A model generated the notes under the pieces. The model was not told the DNA's origin. It saw only the letters and a program-made list of their open reading frames with translations, and made no database searches. This document shows positions 1,376-61,611 of a stretch of DNA of 64,000 nucleotides, piece after piece (position 1 is the first letter of the stretch; each line of letters starts with the position of its first letter). Source of the stretch: Streptomyces sp. NRRL S-1022 (GTDB taxonomy: Bacteria > Actinomycetota > Actinomycetes > Streptomycetales > Streptomycetaceae); the NCBI RefSeq assembly GCF_000720135.1, contig NZ_JOIU01000010.1:62001-126000 (forward strand), read 5' to 3'. The position numbers were made by a program, and so were the translations under genes.

Positions 1376-3679
1376 ATGAGTGCGGAGGCCACGAACCCTG
1401 CGACCGCTGGCCCGGTAGCGCCCGCAGCGCCACAAGCGCTCACAGCGTCCGTGGCGCCCGCGGCGGCGCGCAGGAAGTCCCGGCCCCGGATCGACCTGCG
1501 CCGGCTGGGCCGGGCCGCGCTGCTCGGCCCCGCCGGCCGCGACAGGCTGCCCGACGCCATCGGCCACGTCGTGGAGGCGCACCGGGCCCACCATCCCGAC
1601 GCCGACCTCGACCCCCTGCGCCGCGCCTACGTCCTGGCGGAGTCCTCGCACCGCGGACAGATGCGCAAGAGCGGCGAGCCGTACATCACGCACCCGCTCG
1701 CCGTCACCCTGATCCTCGCCGAACTGGGCGCCGAGACCACGACGCTGACGGCCTCCCTGCTGCACGACACCGTCGAGGACACCGAGGTGACGCTGGATCA
1801 GGTGCGGGAACAGTTCGGCGAGGAGGTTCGTTATCTGGTCGACGGCGTCACGAAACTGGAGAAGGTCGACTACGGAGCCGCCGCCGAGCCGGAGACCTTC
1901 CGCAAAATGCTCGTCGCCACGGGCAACGACGTGCGCGTGATGTCGATCAAACTCGCCGACCGCCTGCACAACATGCGCACCCTCGGCGTGATGCGCCCCG
2001 AGAAACAGGCGCGGATCGCCAAGGTGACCCGTGACGTCCTCATCCCGCTCGCCGAACGCCTCGGCGTACAGGCCCTGAAGACCGAGCTGGAGGACCTGGT
2101 CTTCGCCATCCTCCACCCCGAGGAGTACGAGCACACGAGAGAACTCATCGCGGAGAACGCCGCCCGCCCCGGCGACCCCCTCGCCGAGGTCGCCGAGGAG
2201 ATGCGCGGGGTGCTGCGCGAGTCCGGCATCCCCGCCGAAGTCCTCATCCGTCCCCGGCACTTCGTCTCCGTGCACCGCGTGGCCCGCAAACGCGGACAGC
2301 TGCGCGGCTCCGACTTCGGCCGCCTGCTGGTGCTGGTGAACGAGGACGCGGACTGTTACGGCGTGCTGGGCGAACTGCACACCTGTATGACGCCGGTGGT
2401 CTCGGAGTTCAAGGACTTCATCGCCGTACCCAAGTTCAACCTCTACCAGTCCCTGCACACCGCCGTCGCCCGCTCCGACGGCCAGGTCGTCGAAGTCCTC
2501 ATCCGCACCCACCAGATGCACAAGGTCGCCGAGGCCGGTGTCGTCGCCCTCGGGAACCCCTACGCCCCCGCTTCCGACGCTCCCGCCCCCGACCCGGCCA
2601 CGGCAGCCCCCGCCACGGCAGCCCCCGCCATGGCCGGCCCGGCCACCTCCGACGCCGCGGCCGACGGCGAGCGCGCCGACCCCACCCGTCCGGGCTGGCT
2701 CTCCCGTCTCCTCGACTGGCAGCAGGCCGCCCCCGACCCCGACACCTTCTGGTCCACCCTGCGCGAGGACCTCGCCCAGGACCGCGAGATCACCGTCTTC
2801 CGTCCCGACGGCGGCACCCTCGGCCTGCCCGAGGGCGCCACCTGCGTGGACGCGGCCTACGCCCAGTACGGCGAGGACGCCCACGCCTGCATCGGCGCCC
2901 GTGTCAACGGACGGCTGGCCACCCTCAGCACGGTCCTGCGCGACGGTGACACCGTGCAGCTCCTCATGGGCCAGGACCCGGCCTCCGAGCCCTCACGAGA
3001 GTGGCTGGAGCACGCCCACACCCCGGCCGCCCGCATCGCCATCCAGCGCTGGCTGGCGGCCCACCCCGGCGGCGGCACCGGCACCACCGAGCCGGGCACC
3101 CCCGCCGACGCCGTCCCCCCGGCTCCCGCCCGGGACGGTGAAGCCGCCCCGGACGAGCCCGTGGCCGCCCCCGCCGCCTCGTCCGCGCGCCCGCCGGACG
3201 GCGCCCCCGCCCCGTACCCCCGGCGCGCCGACGTCCTCGCGGACCGGCCCGGCGTCGCCGCACGCCTCGCCGGGTGCTGTACGCCCGTACCGCCCGACGA
3301 GATCACCGGCTTCGCGGTGCGCGGGGGAGTGGTGACCGTGCACCGCGCGGAGTGCGCCGCGGTGGCGCACATGAAGAGCAAGGGGCGCGCGGAGATCGGA
3401 GTGCGCTGGGGGGACACCACCGCCTGCCGGGTCACCCTGGTCGCTGAATCGTTCGGCCGCCCCCACCTCCTCGCCGACCTCACCGAGGCGATCGCCCTCC
3501 AGGGCGCCGAGATCGTCTCCGCCACCGTCGAACCGCCCAGCCAGCAGCGGGTCCGCCACACCTACACCCTCCAGCTCCCCGACGCGGCCCACCTCCCGGT
3601 CCTGATGCGCGCCATGCGGGACGTACCCGGGGTGTACGACGTGAGCCGCGCCCAGCACCAGGCACCACCGGCCTCCTGA
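1376..3679 (+). CDS. rshA: RelA/SpoT homologue (RshA type) with HD hydrolase, synthetase-like, TGS and ACT domains
   Basis: RSH proteins make and/or degrade (p)ppGpp. An N-terminal Ala/Pro tail precedes an intact HD hydrolase domain with HRGQMRKSGEPYITHP, HDTVED (His130-Asp131) and LADRLHNMRT. The synthetase-like domain (about 290-390) keeps Glu373 in VEVLIRT, but the Asp of the family motif F/Y-D-x3-R aligns with Gly315 (SDFGRLLVLV). A Pro/Ala linker (about 400-440), a TGS domain and a C-terminal ACT domain follow. The ATG at 1376 has GGAGG five bases upstream; a GTG at 1370 would overlap that site. 767 residues. The sequence suggests mainly hydrolase or regulatory activity; the synthetase activity should be tested rather than assumed absent. 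S. coelicolor rshA lies next to dapF, as here. Confidence 0.88.
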   Translation: MSAEATNPATAGPVAPAAPQALTASVAPAAARRKSRPRIDLRRLGRAALLGPAGRDRLPDAIGHVVEAHRAHHPDADLDPLRRAYVLAESSHRGQMRKSGEPYITHPLAVTLILAELGAETTTLTASLLHDTVEDTEVTLDQVREQFGEEVRYLVDGVTKLEKVDYGAAAEPETFRKMLVATGNDVRVMSIKLADRLHNMRTLGVMRPEKQARIAKVTRDVLIPLAERLGVQALKTELEDLVFAILHPEEYEHTRELIAENAARPGDPLAEVAEEMRGVLRESGIPAEVLIRPRHFVSVHRVARKRGQLRGSDFGRLLVLVNEDADCYGVLGELHTCMTPVVSEFKDFIAVPKFNLYQSLHTAVARSDGQVVEVLIRTHQMHKVAEAGVVALGNPYAPASDAPAPDPATAAPATAAPAMAGPATSDAAADGERADPTRPGWLSRLLDWQQAAPDPDTFWSTLREDLAQDREITVFRPDGGTLGLPEGATCVDAAYAQYGEDAHACIGARVNGRLATLSTVLRDGDTVQLLMGQDPASEPSREWLEHAHTPAARIAIQRWLAAHPGGGTGTTEPGTPADAVPPAPARDGEAAPDEPVAAPAASSARPPDGAPAPYPRRADVLADRPGVAARLAGCCTPVPPDEITGFAVRGGVVTVHRAECAAVAHMKSKGRAEIGVRWGDTTACRVTLVAESFGRPHLLADLTEAIALQGAEIVSATVEPPSQQRVRHTYTLQLPDAAHLPVLMRAMRDVPGVYDVSRAQHQAPPAS

Positions 3680-57967: not shown

Positions 57968-58077
57968 GCCCACGACGGTACGTGGGACCGCCGGAAGCGC
58001 CCCAGGGGGTGTGGGGCGGATCGCTCGATCCACCCGTTGATCAATGGTTGACGGCATGGGTGACGGCATCCACGCGG

Positions 58078-59072: not shown

Positions 59073-60329
59073 CTACTCCGGGAGGGGCTGCGGCGGGCGC
59101 GGACCGACGTAGTGGCCGCTGGGGCGCATGCGCAGCGGGCGCTCGCCGTACTCCTCCAGGGCGTGGGCGATCCAGCCCGCCGTGCGGGCGACGGCGAAGA
59201 TCGTCTCGCCGGCCGTGGCCGGCATGCCGCAGGACGCGGTGAACACCGCCAGGGCCAGGTCCACGTTGGCGTGCAGCGGGGTGTGCCGGGCGGTCGTCGC
59301 CACGATGTCGCGGGCCGCGAGCAGCGCGGACTCCGCGCGCGGGACCTGTTCGAGGAGGCCGAAGAGCACCCGCGCGCGGGGGTCCTCGCCCGCGTACAGC
59401 CGGTGGCCGAGGCCGGGGACGCGGCGGCCCTCGCGCAGTTCGGCGGCGATCACGGGGACCGCCGTGCCCTGGTCCAGCACGTCCAGCAGCATCCGGTGGG
59501 CCAGGCCGCTGGCGGCGCCGTGCAGCGGACCCTCCAGCACGCCGAGCCCGGCCGAGACGGCCGCGTACGCGTGCGCGCGGGCCGAGGCGGCGACCCGTAC
59601 CGCGAGCGTCGACGCGGCCAGGTCGTGGTCGGCGAGCAGCGCCAGCGCGGTGTCCAGGACGCGCAGGGAGGCCTCGTCGGCCGGGCGGCCGGTCAGCCGG
59701 GTCCACAGGCGCTGGGCCAGCGGACCGTCGTCCTTGCGCTCGTACGCGGCCGGCGGCAGGGCGGCGACCAGGGTCGGGATGAGGATCCGCGCCGTACTCA
59801 GCACGGCCTCCTCGGACAGGTCGAAGCGCAGCGGGTCCTCGGCCGCGGCGGCGACCGCCGCCACCCGCAGCCGGTCGACGGGCGAGGCGTGCTCGGACAG
59901 GGCGTCCACCGCGCGGCGGGCGACCTCCACGGTGGTGTCGGGTGCGGAGAAGGCCGCCCCGGGGCTCATCCGGCCCGTCCAGAGCCACTCCGCGACCTCC
60001 TCGTAGGGGTGGCGGGCGGCCAGCTCGACGGCGTCCACGCCCCGGTAGAAGTACCGGTCCTGCTCGATCAGCGTGATCCGGGTGCGGACGGACAGGTCAC
60101 CGCCCGAGCCCGGGGTTCCGGCCGCCTCGCGCCGGTTGCGGCGGGCGAGGGCCTCCACCTCCTTGGCCTCGAAGGTGCTGGCCCGGCCGCCGGGCTCGCG
60201 TCTGCTGCTGAGCAGGCCGCGGCTCACGTACGCGTAGACCGTCTCCGGCTTCACGCCGAGGAGTTCGGCCGTCTCCTTGGTGGTCAGCCGGTGCCCGGGG
60301 CGGTGGGGAACGGTGTCGTGATCGCGCAT
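59073..60329 (-). CDS. Citrate synthase-like protein with N-terminal helix-turn-helix
   Basis: 418 residues. Residues about 15-65 (RLTTKETAELLGVKPETVYAYVSRGLLSSRREPGGRASTFEAKEVEAL) form a MerR-like helix-turn-helix, followed by a short linker and a complete citrate synthase domain with His270 (GPLHGAASG), His309 (VPGLGHRLY) and Asp357 (HANVDLAL). The enzyme may thus bind DNA as well as make citrate (or 2-methylcitrate) from oxaloacetate and acetyl-CoA. The start ATG 60329 has TACGGT 7 nt upstream, a leaderless-type start; GTG 60338 is an alternative. It is divergent from a second citrate synthase, with an inverted repeat in between. Confidence 0.87.
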   Translation of the reverse strand: MRDHDTVPHRPGHRLTTKETAELLGVKPETVYAYVSRGLLSSRREPGGRASTFEAKEVEALARRNRREAAGTPGSGGDLSVRTRITLIEQDRYFYRGVDAVELAARHPYEEVAEWLWTGRMSPGAAFSAPDTTVEVARRAVDALSEHASPVDRLRVAAVAAAAEDPLRFDLSEEAVLSTARILIPTLVAALPPAAYERKDDGPLAQRLWTRLTGRPADEASLRVLDTALALLADHDLAASTLAVRVAASARAHAYAAVSAGLGVLEGPLHGAASGLAHRMLLDVLDQGTAVPVIAAELREGRRVPGLGHRLYAGEDPRARVLFGLLEQVPRAESALLAARDIVATTARHTPLHANVDLALAVFTASCGMPATAGETIFAVARTAGWIAHALEEYGERPLRMRPSGHYVGPRPPQPLPE

Positions 60330-60357
60330 GGACGCCACCGTAGCCGTCTCTGCACAG

Positions 60358-60393
60358 GTTGATGGCTACATGTTGATTACATCAACGTTGACA
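60358..60393. promoter_or_regulatory. GTTGAT/ATCAAC operator array between the two citrate synthase genes
   Basis: Four related half-sites: GTTGAT (60358-60363), GTTGAT (60372-60377), ATCAAC (60381-60386), GTTGAC (60387-60392). The middle two form the palindrome GTTGAT-TAC-ATCAAC. The last overlaps TTGACA (60388-60393), the -35 of the plus-strand promoter (16 bp before TAGACA at 60410-60415). The DNA-binding citrate synthase encoded next door is a natural candidate to bind it. Confidence 0.65.
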
Positions 60394-60444
60394 GGATCTT
60401 CGTCAAGAGTAGACAGTCGGATCAAGTCGAGGGAGGAAAGAACC

Positions 60445-61611
60445 ATGGCCGTCAACAGGACCAGCACCCCGCTCATCGACGCCCCGCGCGGCCTCGCGGG
60501 CGTCGTCGTCGCCGAGACCGAGATCGGTGACGTCCGGGGCCGGGAGGGCTTCTACCACTACCGCCAGTACTCCGCCGTCGACCTCGCCCGCACCCGCAGC
60601 TTCGAGGACGTGTGGCATCTCCTGGTCCACGGCGCGCTCCCGGACGCGCGGCGCGGCGCCGCCTTCGCCGCCGAGACCGCCGCCCTGCGGCGCCTGCCCG
60701 ACGGCGTACGCACGGCCCTGCCCGCGATCGCCGGGGCCGGCCGGCTCTCCGGTCCGCTGGCCGGACTGCGCACGGCACTGTCCCTGCTGGGCGCCGCCCA
60801 GGGCTTCCGGCCGGTCTACGACACCGACCCGGACCAGCGGCGCGCCGACACCGTGGCCGTCTGCGCGGCCGTACCCACCCTGCTGACCGCGCTGTACCGG
60901 CTAGGCCGGGGCCTCGACCCCGTAGAGCCCCGCGAGGACCTCTCGTACGCGGCCAACTACCTGTACATGCTGACCGGTTGGGAACCGGATCCGCGTCGGG
61001 TCCGTGCGGTCGAGCAATACCTGATCTCAACCATTGATCACGGATTCAACGCGTCAACCTTCACCGCACGCGTCATCGCGTCCACCGGCGCCGACGTCAC
61101 GGCCTGCCTGACCGGTGCCGTCGGCGCTCTTTCCGGCCCGCTGCACGGAGGCGCGCCCAGCCGGGCCCTGGACACGCTGGACGCCATCGGCACGCCCGAC
61201 CGGATCGACGCCTGGATCCGCGCCCGGGTGCTCGCCGGCGACCGGATCATGGGCTTCGGCCACGCCGTCTACCGTACGGAGGACCCCCGTTCCCGGATGC
61301 TGCGCGAGATCGCCCTCGGCTTCGGCGGCCCCCGGGTCGACTTCGCGGTGGAGGTCGAGCGCCGGGTGGAGGCGATCCTCGCCGAGCTGAAGCCCGGCCG
61401 CGAACTCCACACGAACGTCGAGTTCTACGCCGGTGTGGTCATGGAACTGTGCGGCCTGCCCCGGGAGATGTTCACCCCCACCTTCGCGGCGGCACGCGTC
61501 GTCGGCTGGAGCGCCAACATCCTGGAACAGGCCACCGACCCGAAGATCATCCGCCCGGTGGCACGGTACGTGGGCCCGGAGCCCAGGGTGGCGGTGGCCT
61601 CCGGCCGCTGA
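60445..61611 (+). CDS. Citrate synthase family protein (Asp-to-Glu active site)
   Basis: 388 residues. GPLHGGAPS (His234), FGHAVYRTEDPRS (His273) and TNVEFYAG align with the citrate synthase active site, but the catalytic Asp is Glu326. Some actinobacterial citrate synthase homologues show NVEFY here, so activity as citrate or methylcitrate synthase may persist. Family segments YHYRQYSAVDLARTRSFEDVWHLLVHG and SYAANYLYMLTGWEPDPRRVRAVEQYLISTIDHGFNASTFTARVIAST are intact. ATG 60445 follows GGGAGGAAAG. It is divergent from the HTH citrate synthase. Confidence 0.88.
   Translation: MAVNRTSTPLIDAPRGLAGVVVAETEIGDVRGREGFYHYRQYSAVDLARTRSFEDVWHLLVHGALPDARRGAAFAAETAALRRLPDGVRTALPAIAGAGRLSGPLAGLRTALSLLGAAQGFRPVYDTDPDQRRADTVAVCAAVPTLLTALYRLGRGLDPVEPREDLSYAANYLYMLTGWEPDPRRVRAVEQYLISTIDHGFNASTFTARVIASTGADVTACLTGAVGALSGPLHGGAPSRALDTLDAIGTPDRIDAWIRARVLAGDRIMGFGHAVYRTEDPRSRMLREIALGFGGPRVDFAVEVERRVEAILAELKPGRELHTNVEFYAGVVMELCGLPREMFTPTFAAARVVGWSANILEQATDPKIIRPVARYVGPEPRVAVASGR

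What the first reader, a model, noticed from the sequence alone, without database searches (positions are those of the whole stretch)
59073..61611. A citrate synthase fused to a DNA-binding domain faces a second citrate synthase across an operator-like array
The minus-strand protein has a MerR-like helix-turn-helix (about 15-65) joined to a complete citrate synthase (His270, His309, Asp357). It is divergent from a second citrate synthase gene. Between them are four GTTGAT-type half-sites, two forming GTTGAT-TAC-ATCAAC, the last overlapping the -35 TTGACA of the partner. I infer a metabolite-sensing enzyme-repressor that controls its own gene and its neighbour, sensing oxaloacetate, acyl-CoA or citrate. 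A helix-turn-helix on citrate synthase-like proteins occurs in actinobacteria, but I know of no described regulatory function.
Basis: partly seen in the sequence, partly recalled or inferred. Interest (0 to 1): 0.78.

Follow-up and report, generated by a model that had tools for sequence, protein, structure and literature searches.

The report
Citrate synthase with DNA-binding domain and operator
A central-metabolism enzyme, citrate synthase, carries a built-in DNA-binding head, and the same short DNA target lies in front of its gene in very distant bacteria, which suggests that the enzyme doubles as a metabolite-sensing switch for its own gene and its neighbour.

Summary
The minus-strand protein joins a winged helix-turn-helix to a full citrate synthase (CS) and faces a second CS gene across 115 bp that hold the four half-sites. 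The array is not chance: its core, RTCAAYRTTGAY, occurs at 1 mismatch or less upstream of the HTH-CS in 74 of 77 Streptomyces loci, 18 of 19 other Actinomycetota and 76 of 80 loci from several phyla, against 1% or less of shuffles. It occurs 3 times in the 8.9-Mb genome, the other two inside coding frames by my reading. Partner-type CS genes with no HTH-CS in the fetched flank lack it (0 of 19). The divergent neighbour changes (CS, homocitrate-synthase-like, CoA-transferase, tricarboxylate-binding protein) while the operator stays. In one relative group the two catalytic residues are lost, but the HTH and oxaloacetate-pocket arginines are kept in 115-120 of 120; the operator is less regular there. 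Best reading: a CS-fold autoregulator of a dedicated local operator, probably a repressor sensing oxaloacetate or citrate. Binding, direction and ligand are inferred. MtrA is already reported to bind the adjacent segment in S. coelicolor (PMC12323332). I found no described regulatory role for the HTH-CS in this library.

The parts
59073..60338 (-). HTH-CS: helix-turn-helix fused to citrate synthase (GTG 60338; alternative ATG 60329); S. coelicolor counterpart SCO5831/citA3, inferred from gene order
   Evidence: gene order in PMC12323332 and PMC9739823
60132..60287 (-). winged HTH domain, residues 18-69
   Evidence: Pfam HTH_17 E 4.4e-9, MerR 29.8 bits over cut-off 28.2; AF2 model block pLDDT 81-94 here
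60216..60242 (-). recognition-helix motif TVYAYVSRG, residues 33-41
   Evidence: 8 of 9 positions invariant in 76 of 76 Streptomyces rows, V38 in 75 of 76; residues 29-41 have mean identity 97% over 400 sampled Streptomyces pairs, against 74% for the CS domain
59121..60092 (-). citrate synthase domain, residues 83-406, with His273, His312, Asp360
   Evidence: Pfam; aligned to solved citrate synthases; residues kept in 76 of 76 Streptomyces rows
60381..60392 (.). operator core ATCAACGTTGAC (RTCAAYRTTGAY)
60373..60385 (.). TTGATTACATCAA, second inverted repeat overlapping the core; TTGAT looks like the kept half of a second palindrome 3 bp away
60359..60363 (.). outer half-site TTGAT (present in some Streptomyces only)
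60402..60425 (.). downstream half-sites GTCAA 60402-60406 and ATCAA 60421-60425 around TAGACAGT 60410-60417, the counterpart of the MtrA-bound S. coelicolor segment
   Evidence: conserved in Streptomyces; MtrA site from PMC12323332, placement by my comparison
60388..60393 (+). TTGACA, probable -35 of the partner gene, inside the operator; TAGACA 60410-60415 is the probable -10
   Evidence: conserved; not found by the consensus scan; inferred
60445..61611 (+). partner citrate synthase (CitA-like; S. coelicolor counterpart SCO5832/citA4, inferred from gene order), Glu326 in place of the catalytic Asp
61027..61058 (.). candidate intragenic auxiliary element in the partner gene (AT-rich codons 191-204 with half-sites), one Streptomyces group only
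   Evidence: AT3 0.43 in the top 12-codon windows against a gene mean of 0.12, 36 rows; function inferred

Best explanation
The minus-strand protein is a citrate-synthase-fold transcriptional autoregulator. Its MerR/excisionase-type winged HTH, two per citrate synthase dimer, binds the palindrome RTCAAYRTTGAY, usually with a further half-site 3 to 7 bp away. The palindrome covers the -35 of the partner gene and lies in the promoter region of its own gene, so binding most likely represses both. The CS pocket is the sensor: oxaloacetate or citrate (or a close 2-oxoacid or tricarboxylate), with or without acyl-CoA, probably shifts the open/closed CS domains and releases DNA, so the second CS is made when its substrate builds up or its product is needed. 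In this genome the protein also keeps the catalytic residues, so it may be an active enzyme as well. Shown by computation: domain make-up, operator conservation, link of operator to HTH-CS, rarity of the site in the genome, changing partners, loss of catalytic residues with the pocket kept. Inferred: binding, repression, ligand, dimer geometry.
For: (1) Operator at 1 mismatch or less upstream of the HTH-CS in 74/77 Streptomyces, 18/19 other Actinomycetota and 76/80 multi-phylum loci; shuffles 0.5-1%, other windows of the same loci 0.5-1.8%; a further half-site follows at 3-7 bp in 71 of 74 Streptomyces and 80 of 94 other loci that have the 12-mer. (2) Specific to the HTH-CS: among 23 fetched partner-like CS genes, 0/19 without and 3/4 with an HTH-CS in the fetched flank carry it, Fisher p 0.002. 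(3) The 12-mer occurs 3 times in the own genome (reversed-pattern control 0), the other two inside coding frames by my reading. In five other genomes it occurs 1-4 times (controls 0-2). (4) Recognition helix 97% identical among Streptomyces, against 74% for the CS domain and 44% for the linker. (5) Co-occurrence of HTH-CS and partner in 121 Streptomyces genomes: both 74, HTH-CS only 4, partner only 1, neither 42 (Fisher p 1e-26, not corrected for kinship). (6) Among 80 loci the gene upstream is a divergent CS 49, codirectional CS 2, HMGL/homocitrate-synthase-like 18, CoA-transferase III 3, TctC 2, DUF2332 2, unresolved 4, and the operator persists. (7) In the 120 nearest listed proteins of L191, His273 and Asp360 are lost in all 120, while Arg321 (120), Arg385 (120), Arg405 (115), His312 (109), His238 (100) and the recognition helix are kept.
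Against: No binding or expression data for this protein. Three Streptomyces genomes without the partner keep a full-length HTH-CS with no operator (L034, L036, L037), so the HTH-CS can persist without this site. Misses elsewhere: L108 among 19 (in that genome the 12-mer lies upstream of the partner instead; L223), and L156, L164, L194, L196 among 80. In 12 loci from the family of L191's genome, mostly lacking the catalytic residues, a clear operator was seen in only 3. MtrA, not the HTH-CS, is the factor reported to bind this intergenic region in S. coelicolor and to lower both genes (PMC12323332). The 80-locus set was picked by the exact helix TLYAYVSRG, so helix invariance there is by construction. 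In some other genomes the 12-mer is no rarer or commoner than its reversed control.
Confidence: 0.74

Rival explanations
1. The operator is read by another regulator such as MtrA, and the HTH on the citrate synthase has only a structural role or is a relic.
For: MtrA binds a probe from the S. coelicolor intergenic region, and both genes are higher in the mtrA mutant at late times (PMC12323332, passages). Three partner-less Streptomyces keep the HTH without an operator.
Against: By my comparison the MtrA sequence corresponds to the -10 side segment, not to the 12-mer. The same 12-mer precedes HTH-CS genes in Chloroflexota, Myxococcota, Acidobacteriota and Pseudomonadota, where one shared actinobacterial factor is unlikely (inference). 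It is absent where no HTH-CS was found beside the CS gene (0/19). The recognition helix is the best-kept part of the protein measured.
Confidence: 0.12
2. Activator rather than repressor: like MerR proteins, the HTH-CS sits at the promoter and turns the partner on when ligand binds.
For: The HTH is MerR-like, and conserved sites continue downstream to the -10 region.
Against: MerR-type activation needs a long 19-20 bp spacer (recalled). Here the TTGACA-TAGACA spacer is 16 bp and the core site covers the -35. No coiled coil follows the HTH in the model.
Confidence: 0.2
3. Subunit titration, which could also work together with the best explanation: HTH-CS and the partner form mixed dimers with one HTH each, which cannot hold the palindrome, so partner level itself is the signal.
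For: Strong co-occurrence of the pair. Citrate synthases are dimers (recalled), and both proteins keep the arginine that in known enzymes comes from the neighbour subunit (recalled; R405 and R370).
Against: The operator is kept where the neighbour is not a citrate synthase (HMGL-like, CoA-transferase, TctC). No complex could be modelled here.
Confidence: 0.08

Closest known systems
PutA, BirA, NadR (enzymes with a DNA-binding domain, 'trigger enzymes'; recalled)
   Same: A metabolic enzyme carries a DNA-binding domain and would act on operators near its own pathway genes, gated by its ligand.
   Different: Different enzyme fold and HTH class (recalled). No binding or ligand gating has been shown here. 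A relative group has lost the catalytic residues.
Bacillus subtilis CitA with its divergent regulator CitR (CitR recalled)
   Same: The partner CS is closest among solved structures to B. subtilis CitA (2c6x, name of the species recalled) and shares Glu for the catalytic Asp; a CitA-type gene faces a divergent regulator.
   Different: CitR is a LysR-type protein (recalled). Here the regulator is itself a citrate synthase.
MerR / BldC-type regulators
   Same: Winged HTH of the same class (Pfam MerR over its cut-off; NCBIfam BldC only a weak match below its cut-off).
   Different: A CS domain replaces the coiled coil, the promoter spacer is 16 bp, and the site is RTCAAYRTTGAY.
S. coelicolor SCO5831/SCO5832 (citA3/citA4)
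   Same: Same gene pair and order; both called citrate synthases (PMC12323332).
   Different: Described there as MtrA targets; no regulatory role is given to SCO5831 in the passages I read.

Membership tests
Citrate synthase family (PF00285) | Citrate_synt domain over the curated cut-off | tested here: met
   217.4 bits, cut-off 27
Citrate synthase family (PF00285) | catalytic His, His, Asp and substrate arginines | tested here: met
   HTH-CS: His273, His312, Asp360, Arg321, Arg385 in 76/76 Streptomyces rows, Arg405 75/76. The partner has Glu326 in place of Asp.
Citrate synthase family (PF00285) | citrate synthase activity | not testable with these tools
   needs enzyme assay
MerR family regulators | MerR-type winged HTH | tested here: met
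   PF00376 29.8 bits over 28.2; PF12728 36.9 over 27; PF13411 21.3, just under 21.6; strand-helix-helix-strand-strand-helix in the model
MerR family regulators | C-terminal antiparallel coiled-coil dimer helix | tested here: not met
   one helix 58-74, a low-confidence linker 74-80, then the CS domain
MerR family regulators | operator in a 19-20 bp promoter spacer | tested here: not met
   16 bp between TTGACA and TAGACA, and the core site covers the -35; promoter itself inferred
DNA-binding metabolic enzymes (PutA/BirA kind) | enzyme domain and DNA-binding domain in one chain | tested here: met
DNA-binding metabolic enzymes (PutA/BirA kind) | operator at own or pathway genes | tested here: met
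   by comparative genomics only
DNA-binding metabolic enzymes (PutA/BirA kind) | ligand state changes DNA binding | not testable with these tools
   needs gel shift with ligands

The most novel reading that the evidence does not exclude
The HTH-CS proteins are an old, multi-phylum class of one-component transcription factors that use the citrate synthase fold as an oxaloacetate/citrate sensor on a nearly unchanging operator (RTCAAYRTTGAY). Some, as in this window, are still enzymes whose catalytic state gates DNA binding; others are pseudo-citrate-synthases that kept only the pocket and the HTH and moved to new neighbours such as a tricarboxylate-binding protein. Homocitrate-synthase-like enzymes and CoA-transferases are further neighbours.
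Probability: 0.5. Interest if true: 0.88.

Novelty: new variant of a known kind. Interest (0 to 1): 0.78.

Why it matters
Citrate synthase is a textbook entry enzyme of the TCA cycle. A version that reads DNA would tie flux at that step directly to transcription with no separate regulator. The conserved operator makes the idea testable at once in many bacteria, and the members without catalytic residues show how an enzyme may turn into a transcription factor. It would also give a function and a binding motif to a large set of proteins often named simply 'citrate synthase', and a possible genetically encoded oxaloacetate/citrate sensor.

Tried and rejected
Chance array: rejected by the shuffle and other-window controls.

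A regulon across the genome: not supported. The 12-mer occurs only 3 times in the own genome; by my reading of the frames (no family search) the other two lie inside genes for a secreted glycosidase-like and a thioredoxin-like protein. TTGAYNNNRTCAA alone is not enriched (4 sites, control 3).

MerR-type promoter with a long spacer: not met. Sigma-70 consensus scan: no hit.

Heteromeric pair as the only reason for co-occurrence: weakened by loci whose neighbour is not a CS.

Operator kept in all betaproteobacterial relatives: not so. RTCAAYNTTGAY was found in 3 of 12 loci; RTCAAYRTTGAY at 1 mismatch or less in 5 of 12, two of them doubtful.

Site near the downstream histidine kinase gene (58036-58052): exact in the window, 2-3 mismatches in a few relatives among 30 loci read, otherwise weak; left as a side note.

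The HTH-CS tree is the quick version; the careful search did not finish and was not resumed.

Literature: nine searches listed no paper that I could recognise from title and abstract start as describing a regulatory role of a citrate synthase with HTH. The library lacks most subscription journals.

Full report
WHAT IS THERE. The window lies in an 8.9-Mb genome that the tool places in one genus with the 120 others searched. From gene order and the names of near hits I take it to be Streptomyces. ORF 59073-60338 (-) has HTH_17 at residues 18-69 and Citrate_synt at 83-406; ORF 60445-61611 (+) is a second citrate synthase. The genome has four PF00285 genes in all. Downstream on the minus strand follow a sucrase/ferredoxin-like gene and a DcuS/CitA-type sensor kinase and response regulator, the order reported for SCO5831-SCO5828 (PMC9739823, one passage read).

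OPERATOR IN STREPTOMYCES. Of 121 genomes, 78 have the HTH-CS and 75 have the partner: both 74, HTH-CS only 4 (G013, G102, G107, G110), partner only 1 (G027), neither 42. In three of the 74 the arrangement is broken: the partner gene is split in G095 and G012, and in G032 (L026) the partner sits 1.4 kb away in the other orientation, with one mismatch in the 12-mer by my reading. I ran the count on the upstream region of 77 of the 78 genomes (L005-L081, the window included); G102 was read by eye. The stretch ATTGATTcAATCAAtATTGACAg...agTCAAgcaTgGAcaGTCGaatCAag is conserved: 1.86 bits per base in the 12-mer, 0.11 in the 25 columns farthest towards the HTH-CS, and 0.77 in the 60 columns towards the partner, where more conserved sites lie (73 rows). 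RTCAAYRTTGAY is present at 1 mismatch or less in 74 of 77 (71 exact); the three misses are the partner-less G013, G107 and G110. Two of these share 94% protein identity and the third 81-83% with them, so this may be one or two events. G102, the fourth genome without the partner, keeps a one-mismatch copy (GGCAACGTTGAT) and loose half-sites, but not the conserved arrangement (by eye). G027, with the partner but no HTH-CS, keeps the promoter-side TGGACAGT and lacks the palindrome.

OPERATOR BEYOND STREPTOMYCES. A phylum search at E 1e-45 or better found the HTH-CS in 27 of 296 genomes, 7 of them in the window's genus. Among 19 loci outside the genus that are readable at their 5' end, 18 have the 12-mer at 1 mismatch or less, for example ATCAACGTTGAT-cga-ATCAACGTTGAC in L102; two of the 19 (L101, L103) are near-copies. 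The miss, L108, has the 12-mer upstream of its partner gene instead (L223). 76 of 80 have the 12-mer, against about 1% of shuffles and 9 of 1467 other windows. That set was chosen by the exact peptide TLYAYVSRG, so helix conservation there is circular; the Streptomyces and phylum sets were not chosen so, and they show TxYAYVSRG too. As a negative control, 23 partner-like CS genes of other Actinomycetota were read: 4 have an HTH-CS within the fetched flank and 3 of these have the exact 12-mer (the fourth has 2 mismatches); of 19 without, none has it at 1 mismatch or less.

NEIGHBOURS. In the 80 loci the gene upstream is a divergent CS in 49, a codirectional CS in 2, an HMGL-like enzyme in 18, a CoA-transferase III in 3, TctC in 2, DUF2332 in 2, and unresolved or cut off in 4. 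The HMGL-like and TctC groups were assigned by tblastn to members confirmed by Pfam (2 HMGL-like, 1 TctC); all 3 CoA-transferases were scanned themselves. One HMGL match (L153) is short. The two HMGL-like proteins scanned are nearest to NifV homocitrate synthase and isopropylmalate synthase, well below the curated cut-offs; these families join acetyl-CoA to a 2-oxoacid with an unrelated fold (established knowledge). On the quick tree of 96 HTH-CS rows the HMGL label needs 4 changes, CoA-transferase 2 and TctC 1; some of these changes come from neighbours that are unresolved or cut off. The non-CS neighbours lie in separate parts of the tree, so neighbours were probably exchanged several times while the operator stayed.

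CATALYSIS. His273, His312 and Asp360 are intact in 76/76 Streptomyces and 19/19 further rows. Of 77 of the 80 loci that could be aligned, 9 have a changed residue among these three: L138, L143, L155, L160, L181 (alignment unsure), L184, L191, L192 and L196; two more rows are cut off. Eight of the nine keep the 12-mer at 1 mismatch or less; L196 does not. L191 and L192 lost both the acetyl-CoA enolisation His and Asp (equivalents of pig His274 and Asp375, recalled) and keep His238, His312, Arg321, Arg385 and Arg405 (equivalents of the oxaloacetate-binding pig His238, His320, Arg329, Arg401, Arg421, recalled). A search of 5.8 billion sequences with L191 gave 3071 hits at E 1e-30 among the 7996 candidates scored; in the best 120, which are the ones listed, His273 and Asp360 are absent in all 120, Arg321 and Arg385 are present in all, Arg405 in 115, His312 in 109, His238 in 100, and helix residues Y35, Y37, R40, G41 in all. 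In 12 loci from 10 of 200 genomes of L191's family, 10 of the 12 lack the canonical pair and keep all four pocket residues scored (H238, R321, R385, R405), one (L250) lost the pair and part of the pocket, and one (L244) has all of them but its HTH did not align; a clear operator is present in only 3, L191's own locus among them. So the operator rule weakens there; those genes may lie inside operons or use changed sites.

PARTNER. The partner has Glu326 where citrate synthases have the catalytic Asp: 72/72 Streptomyces and 64 of 69 other aligned rows, the other 5 having Asp. 2c6x (citrate synthase 1, B. subtilis CitA as recalled), its best solved relative, has the same NVEFY, and so do most partner-like genes without an HTH-CS neighbour, so this is a trait of the CitA type and not special to the pair. 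In one Streptomyces group (36 rows) codons 191-204 of the partner are AT-rich at third positions (0.43 in the top windows against a mean of 0.12) and spell half-site-like repeats at window 61027-61058; the other group (37 rows) lacks this peak. The groups were split by rank of HTH-CS identity, not by a tree. It could be an auxiliary operator about 650 bp away.

STRUCTURE. The AF2 model (42-row alignment) has mean pLDDT 91, a winged HTH (E17-19 H20-27 H31-39 E45-47 E54-57 H58-74), a loose linker at 74-80 and a CS fold. The 50 best Foldseek matches shown are all citrate or methylcitrate synthases, at up to TM 0.69 on query length. A profile of the HTH region finds MerR-type chains in the PDB only at E 0.03 or worse. 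Placement of the two HTHs in a dimer was not tested.

MECHANISM. The core site covers the TTGACA of the partner and lies in the promoter region of the HTH-CS, with a 16-bp spacer to TAGACA. Occlusion is therefore likelier than MerR-type activation. The kept pocket in members without the catalytic pair points to oxaloacetate, citrate or a close relative as ligand, rather than turnover. MtrA binding next to the site in S. coelicolor (PMC12323332, passages only) shows that the region takes further inputs, and the two may compete.

LITERATURE. Nine searches found the S. coelicolor pair in four papers; passages were read in three of them, and PMC8981147 was seen in the listing only. A GlnR review (passages) reports GlnR control of citrate synthase genes in Saccharopolyspora. 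None of what I read describes regulation by the HTH-CS itself.

VERDICT. I rate it a new variant of the known kind 'enzyme with DNA-binding domain', with high interest because the conserved operator makes it directly testable.

Noticed in passing
58036-58052: GTTGATCAATGGTTGAC upstream of the DcuS/CitA-type sensor kinase gene (57970 and below, minus strand). It shares GATCAATGGTTGA with the intragenic element at 61027-61058 on the other strand. Exact in this genome; weaker or TTGATCAA-like forms in some of 30 relatives read.
   Followed up: partly
61027-61058: Partner gene codons 191-204 are unusually AT-rich at third positions in one Streptomyces group and spell TTGA/TCAA half-sites, a candidate intragenic operator or other DNA/RNA signal.
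   Followed up: partly
61420-61422: The partner citrate synthase has Glu where the catalytic Asp is expected, in nearly all relatives aligned; what CitA-type enzymes with Glu make is unclear.
   Followed up: partly
L034, L036, L037, L087: Four Streptomyces genomes have the HTH-CS but not the partner; three have no operator left, and the fourth (G102, L087) keeps a one-mismatch 12-mer by eye. What the HTH-CS does there is open.
   Followed up: partly
L128 and L165, upstream of position 3501: In two Nocardia loci the operator lies between the HTH-CS and a divergent DUF2332 gene, a hint that DUF2332 acts in acyl-CoA or tricarboxylate metabolism.
   Followed up: no
P0001-P0120, L240-L250: A mainly betaproteobacterial group (by the names given) of 'citrate synthases' with HTH lacks the catalytic His and Asp in all 120 listed proteins; likely pseudo-enzymes annotated as citrate synthase.
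   Followed up: partly
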